This document shows, one piece after another, positions 1-59,599 of a DNA stretch of 64,000 bases. The stretch covers positions 1 through 64,000 of the forward strand of contig NZ_SIJH01000005.1 of the NCBI RefSeq assembly GCF_004762095.1, in the 5' to 3' direction. The notes beneath the pieces were generated by a model that made no database searches, was not told where the DNA came from, and saw only the letters and a program-made list of their open reading frames with translations. Numbering within the stretch: the stretch's first letter is position 1; each line of letters opens with the position of its first letter. Origin of the DNA: Tabrizicola caldifontis. Lineage in GTDB: Bacteria; Pseudomonadota; Alphaproteobacteria; Rhodobacterales; Rhodobacteraceae. A program made the translations under genes and the position numbers.

Positions 1-161
1 AGCCGCAGCGACCCGCAAAAAGAAGGAAGACAGCCATGCCTTGACCCCAGCCTGAGCCGAAATCCATAATCAGAGGTGGCTCACTTCTCGATGGAAAACC
101 CGGCTCAGTTCTGGGTGGAAATCAACAGCTCTGCTTGTATCAACTTGATACGAGCGACCGT

Positions 162-3407: not shown

Positions 3408-3561
3408 CATCATCATCATCATCATCAGGGGCAGATGGTCGAGTGTGTCTGGAGGAGGAGGAGGAGGAGTCATACCCTCTCATCCCATGCTCATGGTCAT
3501 CCTGAGGCTAGGCACCTCATGACCATCCTGAAGCTCACTCACTGTCGTGGTCCAGCTTCAG
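3408..3561. repeat. Element control region: CAT and GGA tracts, direct and inverted repeats
   Basis: The 426 bp between the genes at 3214 and 3641 carry no convincing gene. They hold 20 bp of CAT repeat (3408-3427), 19 bp of GGA repeat (3451-3469), two 19-bp direct repeats matching at 16 positions with a 26-bp period (3490-3508 and 3516-3534), and a perfect 8-bp inverted repeat CTGAAGCT/AGCTTCAG (3528-3535 and 3554-3561). Such clustering suits protein binding, for example a regulator or recombinase accessory site, but no function is proven. Confidence 0.5.
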
Positions 3562-3640
3562 TATACCTCAATCCATCTCAGGGCTAAGGTGTGGGTTAAT
3601 TGCCCGCGCCCATAAGTCATTGATATTGCTTACCCCGGTT

Positions 3641-4303
3641 TCAGCCCGCTTTCAGCCTCTCCAGCGTCCTCATGACCTGCGAAGCCGACCACTGCCCGCC
3701 CCGTGGCGTGGTGACCCCTGAGGCGTTCAGCGCCCCTGCAATCTCCCTCAGGGACTTCCCGGCAGCCTTCAGGGGCAGTAACAGGGCAGCCACCTTCTGA
3801 GCGCTGGCATCGGCCCCAGCCTGAATAGCCTCGTTCCGTGCCTCGGTCTTGGGGCGAAGGCCCCCCAGCTTGACCCCACGCGCCTTGGCCTCTGCCAGTG
3901 CTGCCTTGGTCCTGAGGGAGATGAAGTCCCGCTCTTGCTCTGCCAACATGGCGTAGAGGTGCAACTCAATCTTGGAGGCCATGGGGATCGAGGCCACCCT
4001 GAAGGTCACCTTCGGGTCTTCCATCAAGGTGGCGATGAAGGACAGCTTGCGGGACAGGCGGTCCAGCTTGGCGACAAGGAGGGTGGCCCCGGTCTTCCGG
4101 CAGAGGTCTAGAGCCTTGGTCAACTCGGGTCTGGCATCATCGGTCCCCGAGAGAATGTCGGTGAACTCCCCGATGACCTCAAAGGGCACCTCTGCATAGG
4201 TGGTCAGGAAGAGGTCAAGGTCACGTTGCTGGGCAGCAAGCCCAAGGCCTGACTCCCCTTGCTCCTTGGTCGAGACGCGGCGGTAGAGGATGAACTGTTG
4301 CAT
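3641..4303 (-). CDS. Serine site-specific recombinase (resolvase/invertase family)
   Basis: Cuts and rejoins DNA through a Ser-DNA link. The N-terminal resolvase domain (residues 1-140) has the Tyr-Arg-Arg-Val-Ser start with catalytic Ser11, the LDRLSRK segment with active-site Arg, and the usual long helix with an acidic-Arg-Asp-Phe-Ile-Ser core. The C-terminus (about 165-220) is a short helix-turn-helix with the Ser-Leu-Arg-Glu-Ile-Ala and Thr-Pro-Arg-Gly-Gly-x-Trp signature. At 220 aa it is a small resolvase, not a large integrase. ATG at 4303 is chosen because it gives the standard N-terminus. GTG at 4315 is possible, but it lies inside the 12-bp inverted repeat. It is the clearest mobility gene here. 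Confidence 0.9.
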   Translation of the reverse strand: MQQFILYRRVSTKEQGESGLGLAAQQRDLDLFLTTYAEVPFEVIGEFTDILSGTDDARPELTKALDLCRKTGATLLVAKLDRLSRKLSFIATLMEDPKVTFRVASIPMASKIELHLYAMLAEQERDFISLRTKAALAEAKARGVKLGGLRPKTEARNEAIQAGADASAQKVAALLLPLKAAGKSLREIAGALNASGVTTPRGGQWSASQVMRTLERLKAG

Positions 4304-4352
4304 GGCCTGACTCACTGGTTCCGAGGTGTGTTTCGCCCTTGTGAGTCAGGCC
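4304..4352. repeat. Perfect 12-bp inverted repeat abutting the recombinase start
   Basis: GGCCTGACTCAC (4304-4315) and GTGAGTCAGGCC (4341-4352) are exact inverted copies separated by 25 bp, and the left arm touches the recombinase ATG. It could be the recombination site or operator of the recombinase. In the mRNA it would form a strong hairpin that buries the AGG in front of the ATG. Confidence 0.7.
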
Positions 4353-4385
4353 GTTGCAAATGTCAACGTTCCTTGTGATTGCAAC
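4353..4385 (-). promoter_or_regulatory. Recombinase promoter -35 inside an inverted repeat
   Basis: On the minus strand a consensus TTGACA (4361-4366) lies between GTTGCAA (4353-4359) and TTGCAAC (4379-4385), a perfect 7-bp inverted repeat. The matching -10 (near 4338-4343, CACAAG) is weak. The layout suits a repressed promoter for the recombinase. Confidence 0.4.
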
Positions 4386-4386
4386 A

Positions 4387-4563
4387 CTAGCTTTGTGAGG
4401 CCCAAGAGACGGACACCCCCGGCAGATCAAGGGTGCCTCCGCTGATCGGGTCGCGGGTGATGCCATAGCGGGCAGCCGGTGCGGTCTCGCGTTGAGCGAA
4501 GACCTCCCATCGACCAAGGCGGATGGACAGGAAGGAACGGGAAGCGGTGAAGCTGATGGTGAT
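4387..4563 (-). CDS. Small protein with probable AUC start (58 aa)
   Basis: An open frame of 58 codons plus TAG with no ATG, GTG or TTG at its head. A strong AAGGAG lies 7 nt before an ATC codon at 4563, and an in-frame TAA lies just before the AAGGAG. The product opens with Thr-Ile-Ser-Phe and alternates hydrophobic and basic residues (Ser-Ile-Arg-Leu-Gly-Arg-Trp-Glu-Val), then has Arg-Tyr-Gly-Ile-Thr-Arg-Asp and a Gly-Leu-Asp-Leu-Pro tail, so it reads as a real small beta-rich protein. A CTG at codon 12 would be a poorer start. A sequencing error or a mutated ATG could also explain it. It would be translated from the promoter at 4609-4637 and precedes the recombinase. Confidence 0.5.
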   Translation of the reverse strand: MTISFTASRSFLSIRLGRWEVFAQRETAPAARYGITRDPISGGTLDLPGVSVSWASQS

Positions 4564-4608
4564 GTGTAGGCTCCTTTAGGTGGACCGAGGGTGTTCCCCC
4601 GGTGCCCC

Positions 4609-4637
4609 TTCATGAGTCCCGCATGAAAACCTGTCAA
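4609..4637 (-). promoter_or_regulatory. Leftward promoter with operator-like repeat
   Basis: Minus-strand TTGACA (4632-4637), a 17-bp spacer and CATGAA (4609-4614) as a weak -10. A perfect inverted repeat TTCATG-N7-CATGAA (4609-4614 and 4622-4627) covers the spacer and -10, as an operator would. It lies upstream of the AUC-start gene, after an AT-rich stretch at 4640-4670. Confidence 0.45.
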
Positions 4638-4830
4638 CCCATTGTTTTATTTAACTTAAAGGAATATTCCGCAGGTGGATGGAAGGTGAAACCTGTGGCC
4701 CTACCGGGGGGTCTGCGCGGTCTACATAGTGTATCTCTCTCTGACGAAAATGCGTGGTAAACCATAGTGACCCCCTGACAATCAGTGAGCCGTGTGGTTC
4801 AACCTCCCAAGGCATTGAATGTAGGCCCTA

Positions 4831-5088
4831 ATGTTCTTCACCAAGGCGGGGCGAATTGCCGCGTGGATTGCAACCGTAGTAGCACTCATGTCCATCGCCC
4901 TGGGCTATGCAATCGGATGGGGTGGGACCGACTCCGTTCTGGCAGAGGCCTTCCGCATCGACTCTCCCCAGAAAGCCGTCGCTCAAAGCAAGCTGTCCCT
5001 GAGCCAAGGCTATGCCCTCCTGTTCTGCGGCCTCGTCTTGGGCATCCTGTCAGAGATTAGCGAGTCCATTGCAGGTCGCACGGATTGA
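4831..5088 (+). CDS. Small two-helix membrane protein (85 aa)
   Basis: No family recognised. Two hydrophobic segments are clear: about residues 9-30 (Ile-Ala-Ala-Trp then Val-Ala-Leu) and 60-78 (Ala-Leu-Leu-Phe-Cys-Gly-Leu). Between them is a polar loop of about 30 residues, so both ends should face the same side of the inner membrane. A weak AGG lies 7 nt before the ATG. It is the only clear rightward gene at the right edge of the element and stands alone. Small two-helix proteins of this sort can be holins or exclusion factors of phages, but no motif supports either. Confidence 0.5.
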   Translation: MFFTKAGRIAAWIATVVALMSIALGYAIGWGGTDSVLAEAFRIDSPQKAVAQSKLSLSQGYALLFCGLVLGILSEISESIAGRTD

Positions 5089-5398
5089 CCGCTTGCCTCG
5101 ACGGCACACTTTCCCTACACCTCAGGCACACGCGACACTATCCAGCCGGAAGCAAAGCACTCAGGAAGCTATTGAGAAATAACAGAAAAGGCCAATGGCT
5201 CTAGGGTTCGATTTCCAAGCCCGGAGACCGCCGCCCGCTCCAGACCCTTCCCCCGAAGACTGGCGCGACCCATTCTGGATCTGTCGACTCTGGATCTGGA
5301 GACGGACCAGCCATCGCCCAGGCGACTTATAAGTGGCGGCACGCCTGGGCGCGGCGGTTTGATGACAAGGTAACGACGCCGAACGAGGAACGGCGCTG
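5089..5398. other. Gene-free border between mobile element and chromosome, with hairpin
   Basis: No gene is supported in these 310 bp. They hold a perfect 10-bp inverted repeat CGCCCAGGCG/CGCCTGGGCG (5315-5324 and 5342-5351) whose loop begins with the palindrome ACTTATAAGT, and a direct repeat TCTGGATCTG (5274-5283 and 5289-5298). The hairpin lies 48 nt past the fabI stop and may end that transcript, though it has no T-tract. The element probably ends in this stretch. A T-arm-like GGTTCGATT at 5210-5218 has no matching stem. Confidence 0.4.
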
Positions 5399-6187
5399 TC
5401 AGAGGTTTTCCGCCTGCGGGAAGCCCAGCGCGTGATAGCCGCCATCGACATGGACGATCTCGCCCGTCGTGCAGGCGCCGTAGTCGGAACAAAGCCAGAC
5501 CGCCGTGCCGCCGATCGCCTCCAGCGTCGCATTGGCGCGCAGGGGGGCGTTTTCCTCGGTATGCCGGAAGGTCGCCCGGGCGCCGCCGATCGCCGATCCC
5601 GCCAGCGTCTTCATTGGCCCGGGAGAGATCGCATTGACGCGAATCTTCTGCGGCCCCAGATCGTTGGCCAGGTAACGGGTGGCCGATTCCAGTGCGGCCT
5701 TGGCCACGCCCATCACGTTGTAGTTCGGCGAAACGCGGTTCGATCCCTGGAAGGTCAGCGTCACCAGGCTACCGCCGTTCGGCATCAGCGGTTCGGCCCG
5801 GCGGGCAATGTCAATGAACGAAAAGCACGAAATGTTCAGCGAGTTCAGGAAGTTGCCCTTGGTCGTATTGATGAAGCGACCCGTCAGTTCCGTCTTGTCG
5901 GAATAGGCGATGGCGTGGATGACGAAATCCAGGCTTCCCCAGCGGCGCCCAAGTTCGGCGAAGCAGGCGTCAAGGCTGGCCTCGTTCGTCACGTCGACAT
6001 CCAGAAGAAGATCCGACCCCACCGAGGCCGCCAACGGCTGCACTCGCTTGCCAAATGCTTCGCCCTGATAGCTGAAAGCCAGTTCCGCGCCTTCCGCATG
6101 CATTGCCGAGGCTATGCCCCAGGCGATCGACCGGTCGTTCGCCACGCCCATGACAAGCCCGCGCTTGCCCTTCATGAGGTCTGCCAT
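5399..6187 (-). CDS. fabI: Enoyl-[acyl-carrier-protein] reductase (NADH)
   Basis: Reduces the trans-2-enoyl-ACP double bond, the last step of each fatty acid elongation cycle, in the cytosol. At 262 aa it has the usual FabI length. The N-terminal Rossmann segment (Gly-Val-Ala-Asn-Asp-Arg-Ser-Ile-Ala-Trp-Gly, residues 14-24) and the Tyr-x6-Lys catalytic pair in YNVMGVAK (about residues 160-167) are present, followed by the Ile-Ser-Pro-Gly-Pro substrate loop. It begins 6 bp after fabB, so fabA-fabB-fabI form one leftward transcription unit. Being the target of triclosan and isoniazid-type inhibitors is a family property. Nothing is unusual in the sequence. Confidence 0.95.
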   Translation of the reverse strand: MADLMKGKRGLVMGVANDRSIAWGIASAMHAEGAELAFSYQGEAFGKRVQPLAASVGSDLLLDVDVTNEASLDACFAELGRRWGSLDFVIHAIAYSDKTELTGRFINTTKGNFLNSLNISCFSFIDIARRAEPLMPNGGSLVTLTFQGSNRVSPNYNVMGVAKAALESATRYLANDLGPQKIRVNAISPGPMKTLAGSAIGGARATFRHTEENAPLRANATLEAIGGTAVWLCSDYGACTTGEIVHVDGGYHALGFPQAENL

Positions 6188-15335: not shown

Positions 15336-16892
15336 ATGATCGTCCTCTCGACCTGGTCCCACGGGCGCCGGCTGGTGCTGGCCTTTGTGCTGGGCGCGTT
15401 AGGCGCGCTGGGGCAGGCACCATGGGGCCTTTGGCCGCTGACCGTGGCGACACTGGCCGGGGTGATCTGGTTGATTGCACAGGAAAGGCGGGTCTGGGCG
15501 GCGTTCCGGCTGGGGCTTGCTGCAGGCACCGGTCAGTTCGCGCTGGCGCTGTCCTGGATCGTGGAACCCTTCCTGATCGACGTGGCCACCCACGGCTGGA
15601 TGGCGCCCTTCGCGGTGCTGTTCCTGTCGGTGGGGCTGGGCCTGTTCTGGGGCGCCTCGGCGGCGCTTGCAGTCATGACCCGTGTACCGGCCGTGGGCTT
15701 CGTCGCTGCCTTCGCCACGCTTGAATGGCATCGCGGCGTGATCCTGACCGGCTTTCCATGGGCGATGCTGGGCCACAGCTTCATCGGCACGCCGGCCGAT
15801 CAGGTGGCTGCGTTACTCGGCCCTTCGGGCCTCAGCCTGATGATGCTGCTGGCAGCCGCGCTTCCGGTAGCGTGGCGCTGGCGCGGGGCTGCCGGGTCGG
15901 GAGTGATCCTGGCGGCTGCCTTCGGCTTCGGGCTCTGGCGGCTGGGCCAGCCCCTGCCCGAGCCGCGCGAGGGGGTGGTGCGCCTGGTCCAGCCGAATGC
16001 CGAACAATCGCTGAAGTGGGATCAGGCTCTGGCCGACATGCACCTCGACCGGCTTCTGGACCTGACGGCGCAGGGCGGTGCTGCCGACCTGACGCTCTGG
16101 CCGGAAACGGCAGTGCCGTTCATGCTGGAATATGCGCCGGTGGTGGCCGAGATGGTCACTGCGGCCTCGGGTGGTCGCCCGGTCGTTGTCGGCATCCAGC
16201 GCGAGGGCGAGGGGCGGTTCTACAACAGCCTGCGTGTGCTGCAGGACGAAGGGGCAGAGATCGCGCGTTACGACAAGGCGCATCTGGTGCCCTTCGGCGA
16301 ATACATGCCGCTGGGTGATCTGGCCTATGACTGGTTCGGGCTGACAGCCTTTGCCGCGCAGGTGGGCAATTACTATTCCGCGGGGCCGGGTCCACGGGTG
16401 CTGGATCTTGGCCGCTTTGGCAAGGTGCTGCCGCTGATCTGCTACGAGGCGATCTTCCCACGCTTCGTCGCCACCGCGCCAGAGCGGGCCGACTGGATGC
16501 TGCAGGCCACGAACGATGCCTGGTTCGGCATCCGGACCGGCCCGTTCCAGCATTTTGACCAGGCCCGGCTGCGTGCGGTGGAACAGGGGTTGCCGCTGCT
16601 GCGGGTGGCCAATACCGGGGTGACGGCGGTGGTGGACGCTCGGGGACGCGTCGTCGAGGCCCTGCCCTTCGGCACCCTTGGCAAGCTGGATGCACGCATC
16701 CCGGGTGCCTTGCCGCCCACGCCCTACGCCCGTTGGGGGGATCTGCCCTTCTTCCTGTTGCTGGTGGGCCTCGTCCCGCTGGCCTTTCCGCGCCCATTGA
16801 CGCCCATTCGGCTGCCGTCTAGTCAGATGCAACTTGAACCGCCACAACGGCTTCCTGGCGTGGCGGGGATTCATCCAACGGAGCACTTCCCC
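15336..16892 (+). CDS. lnt: Apolipoprotein N-acyltransferase, lacking its own stop codon
   Basis: Adds the third acyl chain to outer-membrane lipoproteins at the inner membrane. It has N-terminal membrane helices (about residues 8-215), then a nitrilase-like periplasmic domain with catalytic Glu (WPETAVP, about residue 254), Lys ([12 protein letters not shown]) and Cys ([10 protein letters not shown]), and a last helix ([13 protein letters not shown], about 473-485). After that helix no stop appears: the frame runs on through the SAM/SAH riboswitch and enters metK in frame at 16893. The end given here is the base before the metK ATG, not a real stop. Either Lnt is made as a Lnt-MetK fusion, or the stop was lost or misread. 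The order corC-lnt-metK is otherwise usual. Confidence 0.88.
16797..16825 (+). promoter_or_regulatory. Probable metK promoter inside the lnt 3' end
   Basis: TTGACG (16797-16802), a 17-bp spacer and TAGTCA (16820-16825). Transcription would begin near 16832, just before the aptamer at 16839, as needed for a short riboswitch leader. The -35 is good and the -10 is poor. Confidence 0.45.
16839..16885 (+). promoter_or_regulatory. SAM/SAH riboswitch controlling metK
   Basis: A 7-bp stem CCGCCAC/GTGGCGG (16839-16845 and 16860-16866) encloses AACGGCTTCCTGGC, the conserved core of the SAM/SAH class of Rhodobacterales, and the downstream CGGAGCA (16879-16885) supplies the pseudoknot. That segment contains the metK ribosome site GGAG (16880-16883), so ligand binding would hide it and stop MetK synthesis when SAM is plentiful. 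It sits 7 bp before the ATG. Recognition is from the remembered class consensus. Confidence 0.9.
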
Positions 16893-58768: not shown

Positions 58769-59599
58769 ATGCGCTTCGCTCTGGTCCTGTTCCTTTCGCT
58801 GCTGCCGGTCCTGGGCCATGCCCAGGACCGGACGCAGACGTTGGCCGACATCCGGGCGGAGCTGGCAATGCTCGCGGCCGAATTCAACGCGCTCAAGGCC
58901 GAGCTGGTGACCACCGGCGCGATGACCAGCGGGGCAGCGGGCGGTGATGCGCTGTCGCGGATGGACGCGATCGAGGCGACGCTAGCCCGGCTGACCGCAC
59001 GGGCCGAAGAGGTGGAACTGCGCGTGAACCGGGTGGTGGCGGATGGCACCAACCGGATCGGTGACATCGAATACCGGCTGTGCGAGGTGACGCCGGGCTG
59101 CGATCCGGGCAACCTTGGCGCGACGCCGACCCTTGGGGGAGACACGGGCGCTGCGGTGGCGGCACCGGCCGTGGTGAACCCCGGGGTCAGCACGGGAACG
59201 GGTGGGGCAGAGCTTGCCGTCAGCGAACAGGCGGACTTCGACCGGGCCAAGGAGGTGCTCGGTCAAGGTGACTTTCGCGGTGCTGCAACGCTCTTTGAGA
59301 CCTTTGCCCAATCCTATCCTGGCGGGCCGCTGACTCAGGAGGCGATGTTCCTGCGCGGCGAGGCGCTAAGCCGCCTGGGCGAGACTTCGGCTGCCGCGCG
59401 GGCCTACCTGGACGCATACACCGCGAACCCGACCGGAACCTTCGCCGCGGATTCGGTGCTGAAGCTGGGCGAGGCGCTGGGCGCGCTGGGCCAGGTCGAC
59501 GCCGGATGCCAGACGCTTGCAGCGGTCGGGATCGAGTTTCCGGGCAGCATCCAGGCTTCGCAGGCCAGCGTGGCAATGCAGGGGCTGGGGTGCCGGTAA
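58769..59599 (+). CDS. cpoB: Cell division coordinator CpoB (YbgF)
   Basis: Periplasmic protein linking Tol-Pal to PBP1B during constriction. The 276-aa chain has a signal peptide (about 1-18), an N-terminal coiled-coil segment (about 20-95), a Gly/Ala-rich linker, and TPR repeats (about 150-276). The last 10 bp overlap the tilS GTG. Organisation is the same as in E. coli ybgF. Confidence 0.92.
   Translation: MRFALVLFLSLLPVLGHAQDRTQTLADIRAELAMLAAEFNALKAELVTTGAMTSGAAGGDALSRMDAIEATLARLTARAEEVELRVNRVVADGTNRIGDIEYRLCEVTPGCDPGNLGATPTLGGDTGAAVAAPAVVNPGVSTGTGGAELAVSEQADFDRAKEVLGQGDFRGAATLFETFAQSYPGGPLTQEAMFLRGEALSRLGETSAAARAYLDAYTANPTGTFAADSVLKLGEALGALGQVDAGCQTLAAVGIEFPGSIQASQASVAMQGLGCR

What the first reader, a model, noticed from the sequence alone, without database searches (positions are those of the whole stretch)
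4304..4385. Perfect 12-bp inverted repeat and second repeat in front of the recombinase
GGCCTGACTCAC/GTGAGTCAGGCC with a 25-bp spacer abuts the recombinase ATG, and GTTGCAA/TTGCAAC encloses a TTGACA next to it. This suits a recombination site with regulated expression of its own recombinase, as in resolvase res sites. In the mRNA the stem would also hide the AGG before the ATG.
Basis: partly seen in the sequence, partly recalled or inferred. Interest (0 to 1): 0.6.

Follow-up and report, generated by a model that had tools for sequence, protein, structure and literature searches.

The report
Read-through-proof switch before phage recombinase
In front of a small mobile-element DNA recombinase gene, a probable binding site that doubles as promoter is followed by a hairpin that should let the gene be translated only from its own transcript and not from messages running in from outside; the trick is known for other selfish genes, and here it is inferred from sequence comparison alone.

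Summary
Both repeats are real but are different things. (1) GTTGCAA/TTGCAAC marks a roughly 35-bp imperfect palindrome (4352-4386, minus strand), present before 27 of 37 recombinase rows at 54% identity or more and single-copy in 14 of 17 carrier genomes. It is most likely the recombinase's dimer site and operator; its TTGACA is the -35 box, with a -10 peak 16-17 bp on across 31 leaders. (2) The perfect 12-bp repeat is not part of that site. Arm sequences are not conserved but pairing is: the nearest relative (75%) keeps 11 of 12 pairs, 5 through changes on both sides. Across 31 leaders, DNA that the gene's own promoter should not transcribe is complementary to the start region: strong stems 15 of 31 (6.7 in shuffles), left arm before the predicted start in 15 of 15, own left part better than swapped ones (0 of 10000). 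Best reading: an anti-read-through RNA gate plus autorepression, as in T4 I-TevI. The recombinase is not the element's integrase: the element sits in tRNA-Gly. Against: 16 of 31 leaders lack a strong stem, the window's -10 is poor, and nothing was tested at the bench.

The parts
3641..4303 (-). small serine recombinase, 220 aa: Resolvase catalytic domain plus part of the Recombinase (PF07508) domain
   Evidence: PF00239 8.4e-24, PF07508 7.5e-06; phrog_125 DNA invertase 7.4e-34; 12 aligned relatives 61-75% identical
4304..4315 (-). right arm of the hairpin (GTGAGTCAGGCC in RNA), directly before the start codon
4316..4340 (-). hairpin loop; contains the predicted transcription start (about 4330, from a fixed spacing, not measured)
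   Evidence: inference from the -35 and the -10 peak
4341..4352 (-). left arm of the hairpin; lies between the -35 and the predicted +1, so it should be absent from the gene's own transcript
4338..4344 (-). position of the predicted -10 (TCACAA or CACAAG, poor match)
   Evidence: peak at spacing 16-17 in 31 leaders; window itself 3 of 6
4352..4386 (-). conserved 35-bp imperfect palindrome, probable recombinase dimer site / operator / crossover site
   Evidence: leave-one-out score 38.7 bits, next best in 64 kb 0.3; one site in the genome
4361..4366 (-). TTGACA, -35 box inside the palindrome
5228..5243 (+). 16 nt shared with the 3' end of tRNA-Gly(TCC), probable right attachment site of the element
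   Evidence: exact match to the tRNA on contig C51; homology to the chromosome of relatives resumes at about 5373

Best explanation
Two-layer control of a mobile-element serine recombinase. Layer 1: a recombinase dimer binds the 35-bp palindrome (its single recombination site, probably used between two copies of the element) and so covers the -35 box of its own promoter, repressing itself. Layer 2: the 12-bp repeat is an RNA hairpin. Its left arm is promoter DNA, upstream of the gene's own transcription start, and its right arm covers the start region. Transcripts that run in from outside (element genes, or host fabI, which points at it) carry both arms, fold and are not translated; the gene's own transcript lacks the left arm and is translated. 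Shown by computation: conserved site, -10 peak, co-varying complementarity. Inferred: binding, repression, start point, silencing, recombination.
For: Site: core score 10 or more of 12 in 29 of 51 rows, 27 of the 37 rows at 54% or more; leave-one-out 24-55 bits in 7 of 8 sequences scanned against at most 6.1 elsewhere, the eighth, L008, 4.8; one strong site each in 14 of 17 genomes. Promoter: -10 match 3.16 against 2.40 (sd 0.16) in shuffles, 0 of 500; A/T highest at spacing 16-17. Hairpin: window z -5.6, L003 -5.1, L045 -5.0, L040 -4.4; mean -1.63 over 22 leaders, against -0.42 in 108 control leaders, Mann-Whitney p 0.0019 (0.0042 without the window), and -0.24 in 21 stretches upstream of the site; 9 viral-contig leaders mean -1.74, Stouffer -5.2. 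Stem better than its own shuffles at p below 0.05 in 11 of 31. Strong stems 15 of 31 against 6.7 (sd 2.1, max 12) per shuffled set; left arm ends by +1 in 15 of 15 against 64% (p 0.0013). Opening cost of the start region, long minus short RNA: 3.97 kcal against 1.29 (sd 0.31) with the 24 nt before +1 shuffled, 0 of 200. Swapped left parts: 10.36 own against 7.82 (sd 0.35), 0 of 10000. Window against L003: 11 of 12 pairs kept, 5 changed on both sides.
Against: 16 of 31 leaders have no strong stem, and the strength limit was chosen. Five of 22 leaders (L041, L043, L044, L009, L052) and L089 fold no better than the mean of their shuffles. The own left part ranks first in only 5 of 31, and only 10 of 31 gain 5 kcal or more. 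The window's -10 matches 3 of 6 and a consensus scan finds no promoter in 3500-5600. 26 of 51 rows, among them those below 54%, were not counted as long leaders. No transcript data; +1 is assumed from spacing. The window's Shine-Dalgarno is weak (AGG, 2 nt from ATG).
Confidence: 0.62

Rival explanations
1. The hairpin forms on every transcript of the gene (the start lies further upstream) and simply keeps translation low or makes it depend on temperature, an sRNA or a protein.
For: The stem is very stable as RNA; start positions are not measured; the window -10 is poor.
Against: A -10 peak at 16-17 bp from the conserved TTGAC puts +1 in the loop or at the end of the left arm, and all 15 strong stems have their left arm end at or before about +1, against 64% expected.
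Confidence: 0.2
2. The 12-bp repeat is DNA: a second recombinase dimer site (res subsite) or the operator of another regulator.
For: Perfect dyad next to the probable crossover site; TCACAAGG occurs both at the end of its left arm and in the palindrome (read).
Against: Arm sequence not conserved in relatives while the 35-bp site is; G-U pairs stand in place of Watson-Crick pairs at 3 of the 12 positions in L003; no second site above 0.3 bits in the window.
Confidence: 0.1
3. The repeat in the window is a chance palindrome, and the statistical signal comes from a minority of relatives.
For: One other 12-bp repeat in the window, mean 0.9 expected; 16 of 31 leaders lack a strong stem.
Against: 1 of 3000 local shuffles; the nearest relative holds the same stem through double changes; set-wide tests at 0 of 200 and 0 of 10000.
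Confidence: 0.08

Closest known systems
T4 homing endonucleases I-TevI, SegB and Aeh1 MobE
   Same: RNA structure hides the ribosome binding site only on long early/middle transcripts; the nearby late promoter makes an RNA too short to fold; I-TevI also represses its own promoter by binding an operator that resembles its target (passages of PMC2988022)
   Different: Another enzyme class; T4 late promoter, not a sigma-70-type one; here the operator is probably also the recombination site and its conserved letters are the -35 box
Fold-back control of IS10 / IS50 / IS200 transposases
   Same: Messages running in from outside are made untranslatable; IS200: one stem-loop ends impinging transcripts, a second occludes the ribosome binding site (one passage of PMC3196728); the IS10 and IS50 cases are recalled, not from a call
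   Different: Transposase gene near the element's end; here an accessory serine recombinase of elements that, where seen, carry a tyrosine integrase
Tn3/gamma-delta and Sin resolvases with res sites; Gin-type invertases
   Same: Serine recombinase catalytic domain; best solved relatives are DNA invertases 4m6f and 3uj3 (8.8e-16, 3.6e-15), then Tn552 bin3 2r0q; gamma-delta resolvase 1zr2 also matches
   Different: res has three (Tn3) or two (Sin) dimer sites (passages of PMC9943657), inversion needs two sites; only one is seen here. DNA-binding part is of PF07508 type

Membership tests
Serine recombinase (Resolvase/PF00239) | Resolvase catalytic domain with RVS and LDRLSR motifs (their catalytic role is recalled) | tested here: met
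   PF00239 8.4e-24; both motifs invariant in the 13 aligned proteins
Tn3-type res system | res site with accessory dimer sites II/III next to the crossover site | tested here: not met
   One site only in the window and 7 loci scanned and no second site in 17 genomes; degenerate accessory sites could be missed
Tn3-type res system | Recombinase binds the site and recombines two copies | not testable with these tools
   needs protein
DNA invertase (Hin/Gin) system | Two inverted crossover sites flanking a segment | tested here: not met
   no second site in any of 17 genomes at E 0.1 (14 have the one by the gene)
Integrase-type serine recombinase of this element | Recombinase site at the element boundary | tested here: not met
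   right boundary is a tRNA-Gly remnant at 5228-5243, about 850 bp from the site; a DUF6538 fragment (integrase type, recalled) lies beside the intact tRNA
I-TevI-like read-through-gated gene | Inhibitory stem needs sequence upstream of the gene's own transcription start | tested here: inconclusive
   Left arm ends by predicted +1 in 15 of 15 strong stems, but +1 is predicted, not mapped
I-TevI-like read-through-gated gene | Long transcript untranslated, short transcript translated | not testable with these tools
   energies only
I-TevI-like read-through-gated gene | Protein's own operator overlaps the promoter | tested here: inconclusive
   TTGAC conserved inside the palindrome with a -10 peak at 16-17; binding not tested

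The most novel reading that the evidence does not exclude
Small serine recombinases of phages and prophage-like elements carry a compact 82-bp control unit in which one palindrome is crossover site, autorepressor operator and -35 box, while the untranscribed promoter DNA just behind it serves as an antisense arm against the gene's own start region. The gate has been re-invented or kept by compensatory change across the family, so that recombinase is made only from its own, self-repressed promoter.
Probability: 0.45. Interest if true: 0.62.

Novelty: new variant of a known kind. Interest (0 to 1): 0.47.

Why it matters
Integrated elements sit beside active host genes; a recombinase switched on by stray transcription would act at the wrong time. 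If the gate is real, fold-back insulation, known from T4 homing endonucleases and insertion sequences, is also a recurrent solution for phage serine recombinases, and it can be recognised from sequence by the pairing of promoter DNA with the start region. It also hands over a 35-bp candidate site for a family of compact recombinases.

Tried and rejected
Reading the 12-bp arms as recombination site: rejected, arms not conserved and no further exact copy in the window. GTG 4315 as start: judged unlikely (start codon aligned with ATG 4303 in 28 of 51 rows, with GTG 4315 in 5; the invariant M1 rests on starts that I chose). Transcription terminator: none found on the minus strand in 3500-5600; one weak match on the plus strand, fewer than in shuffles. 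Serine recombinase as integrase of the element: rejected. Viral-contig search with the single protein found no relative; with the alignment 257, of which 80 were kept. A first tRNA-Gly pattern found nothing. Literature: in the listings I saw no title on hairpin or read-through control of a serine recombinase. The lists were capped for (15 of 35; 15 of 263; 12 of 54), the library is open-access only, and beyond listings I saw only found passages of PMC2988022, PMC4265352, PMC9943657, PMC8450116, PMC3196728 and PMC6954556; PMC4265352, PMC8450116 and PMC6954556 held nothing used here.

Rows dropped before counts: of 51 rows (window included), 25 that I picked for a long leader were folded (L046, L049, L052 kept although their site scores only 8-9) and 26 not; L007, L010, L011 left out of means as near copies. 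Of 80 viral loci, 21 were looked at, 9 used, L086 and L087 left out as near copies of L038, 10 had no site or too short a leader; 59 not examined. L085 is close to L038, and L088-L090 to one another; they were kept, so the 31 leaders are not fully independent. I had seen the leaders by eye before running the tests, so neither set is blind. In one search the ORF starts of the controls are mechanical. In one search, 13 of the 14 genomes with a site had given a sequence to the model, so those hits are by construction; the news there is the lack of a second site.

Full report
What is there. Both repeats exist as described. The gene at 3641-4303 (minus) is a 220-aa small serine recombinase: Resolvase domain plus part of the Recombinase domain, best PHROG a DNA invertase. 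Its own genome has one other match, at 26%. The best named relative is in Cypionkella (Paracoccaceae).

The conserved part is the second repeat. Upstream of the relatives lies a 33-35 bp imperfect palindrome, consensus TGTAACACGCACAACGATCGTTGACATTTGCAACA. Its core scores at least 10 of 12 in 29 of 51 rows, 27 of the 37 at 54% identity or more. A leave-one-out matrix gives the window site 38.7 bits and the next place in 64 kb 0.3; in seven other loci the site scores 24-55 bits in six, L008 being weak at 4.8, and nothing else exceeds 6.1. A sequence-only model finds one strong site in each of 14 of 17 carrier genomes, each time by the recombinase, and no second one; G101 has only a weak match elsewhere, G009 and G331 none. 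That search scores only the best 150 first-look places per genome, and 13 of the 14 sites had gone into the model. In some relatives the outer arms change together on both sides, as expected of a dimer site (my reading). A single copy speaks against an invertase pair and against element ends; recombination between two copies of the element, or a pure operator role, remain.

The site holds the promoter. TTG of TTGAC is invariant in 19 aligned sites, and across 31 leaders the match to TATAAT and the A/T content are highest 16-17 bp further on, with raised values from 13-14: mean best match 3.16 against 2.40 (sd 0.16) in shuffles, 0 of 500. A recombinase bound to the site would cover the -35; that is inference. 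The window's own -10 is poor, and no consensus promoter is found.

The 12-bp repeat is RNA-like. Arm sequences differ between relatives, the pairing does not. In the 75% relative L003 the left arm again starts right after the palindrome and the right arm again ends at the start codon; with no gap, 11 of 12 pairs hold: 4 unchanged, 5 changed on both sides (one of these to a G-U pair) and 2 by one-sided changes to G-U; the twelfth is broken. Fold z-scores: window -5.6, L003 -5.1, L045 -5.0, L040 -4.4, L047 -3.7, L053 -3.0; mean -1.63 in 22, five of them above 0. In 108 control leaders the mean is -0.42 with 6 below -3, against 6 of 22 here (Fisher p 0.0057, Mann-Whitney 0.0019, 0.0042 without the window); 21 stretches upstream of the site average -0.24. 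Nine viral-contig leaders average -1.74.

The left arm lies where the gene's own transcript should not reach. Taking +1 as 36 nt after the first T of the -35, all 15 strong stems (E at most -6.5, a limit set) end their left arm by +1, against 64% for strong stems in shuffles (p 0.0013), and strong stems are twice as common as in shuffles. Taken singly, 11 of 31 beat their shuffles at p below 0.05. The cost of opening the start region is 20.3 kcal in the long RNA and 8.3 in the short one for the window; over 31 leaders the difference is 3.97, against 1.29 (sd 0.31) when only the 24 nt before +1 are shuffled. Exchanging left parts between relatives lowers the mean cost from 10.36 to 7.82 (0 of 10000 permutations reach the observed value). 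Against this stand 16 of 31 leaders without a strong stem, only 10 of 31 with a gain of 5 kcal or more, and 5 of 31 where the own left part ranks first.

Where read-through would come from. By a mechanical ORF reading, the nearest upstream ORF of 140 aa or more points at the recombinase in 16 of the 21 loci that have one, of 27 examined (my count; the window has none so long within the element). In the window the host fabI gene (5399-6187, minus; named by its sequence, not by a search) points at the recombinase, with the element's right end, including an 85-aa ORF on the other strand, between.

The element. Homology to the chromosomes of the genus ends at about 5373. At 5228-5243 lie 16 nt shared with the 3' end of tRNA-Gly(TCC); the intact tRNA is on contig C51, with a DUF6538 protein fragment (an integrase-type domain, recalled) beside it. 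Near the end of that contig a 61-nt stretch is 79% identical to window 77-127, so a repeat, perhaps an insertion-sequence end, may have cut the integrase and broken the assembly. The 160 bp that end in the remnant (5083-5242) recur at 83% in a relative, again ending in tRNA-Gly-like letters (the latter my reading). L003 and L006 combine the recombinase with RNase H, ParB-like and tyrosine-integrase genes. So this is an accessory recombinase of an integrated, prophage-like element.

Mechanism and standing. The best reading is a gate against read-through plus autorepression. T4 I-TevI has both layers (passages), and IS200 hides its ribosome binding site (passage). I therefore call it a new variant of a known kind. 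The listings of the literature searches (three of them capped) showed nothing like it for serine recombinases, in an open-access library only.

Noticed in passing
window 77-127 and 5083-5243; L083 (G000:C51) 65-125 and 752-825: Right end of an integrated element in tRNA-Gly(TCC); the intact tRNA with an integrase-type fragment is on contig C51, and both contig ends share a 61-nt stretch (79%), perhaps an insertion-sequence end where the assembly breaks.
   Followed up: partly
L003 5001-8443, L006 25-5663: Recurring set of small serine recombinase, RNase H, ParB-like protein and tyrosine integrase; the window has a weak RNase H match at 1749-2360. Possibly a family of small integrative elements or satellites.
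   Followed up: partly
L017 1431-1472, also L018: More distant relatives (about 40-49%) have a longer, nearly perfect palindrome (19-bp arms in L017, 13 in L018) about 30 bases before the gene.
   Followed up: no
window 16836-16885: SAM/SAH riboswitch (RF01727, 60.8 bits).
   Followed up: no
window 3408-3469: Trinucleotide runs (ATC/CAT, then GGA) just downstream of the recombinase gene (read).
   Followed up: no
window 58805-58831: The only other perfect 12-bp inverted repeat with a spacer of 3-60 in the window.
   Followed up: no
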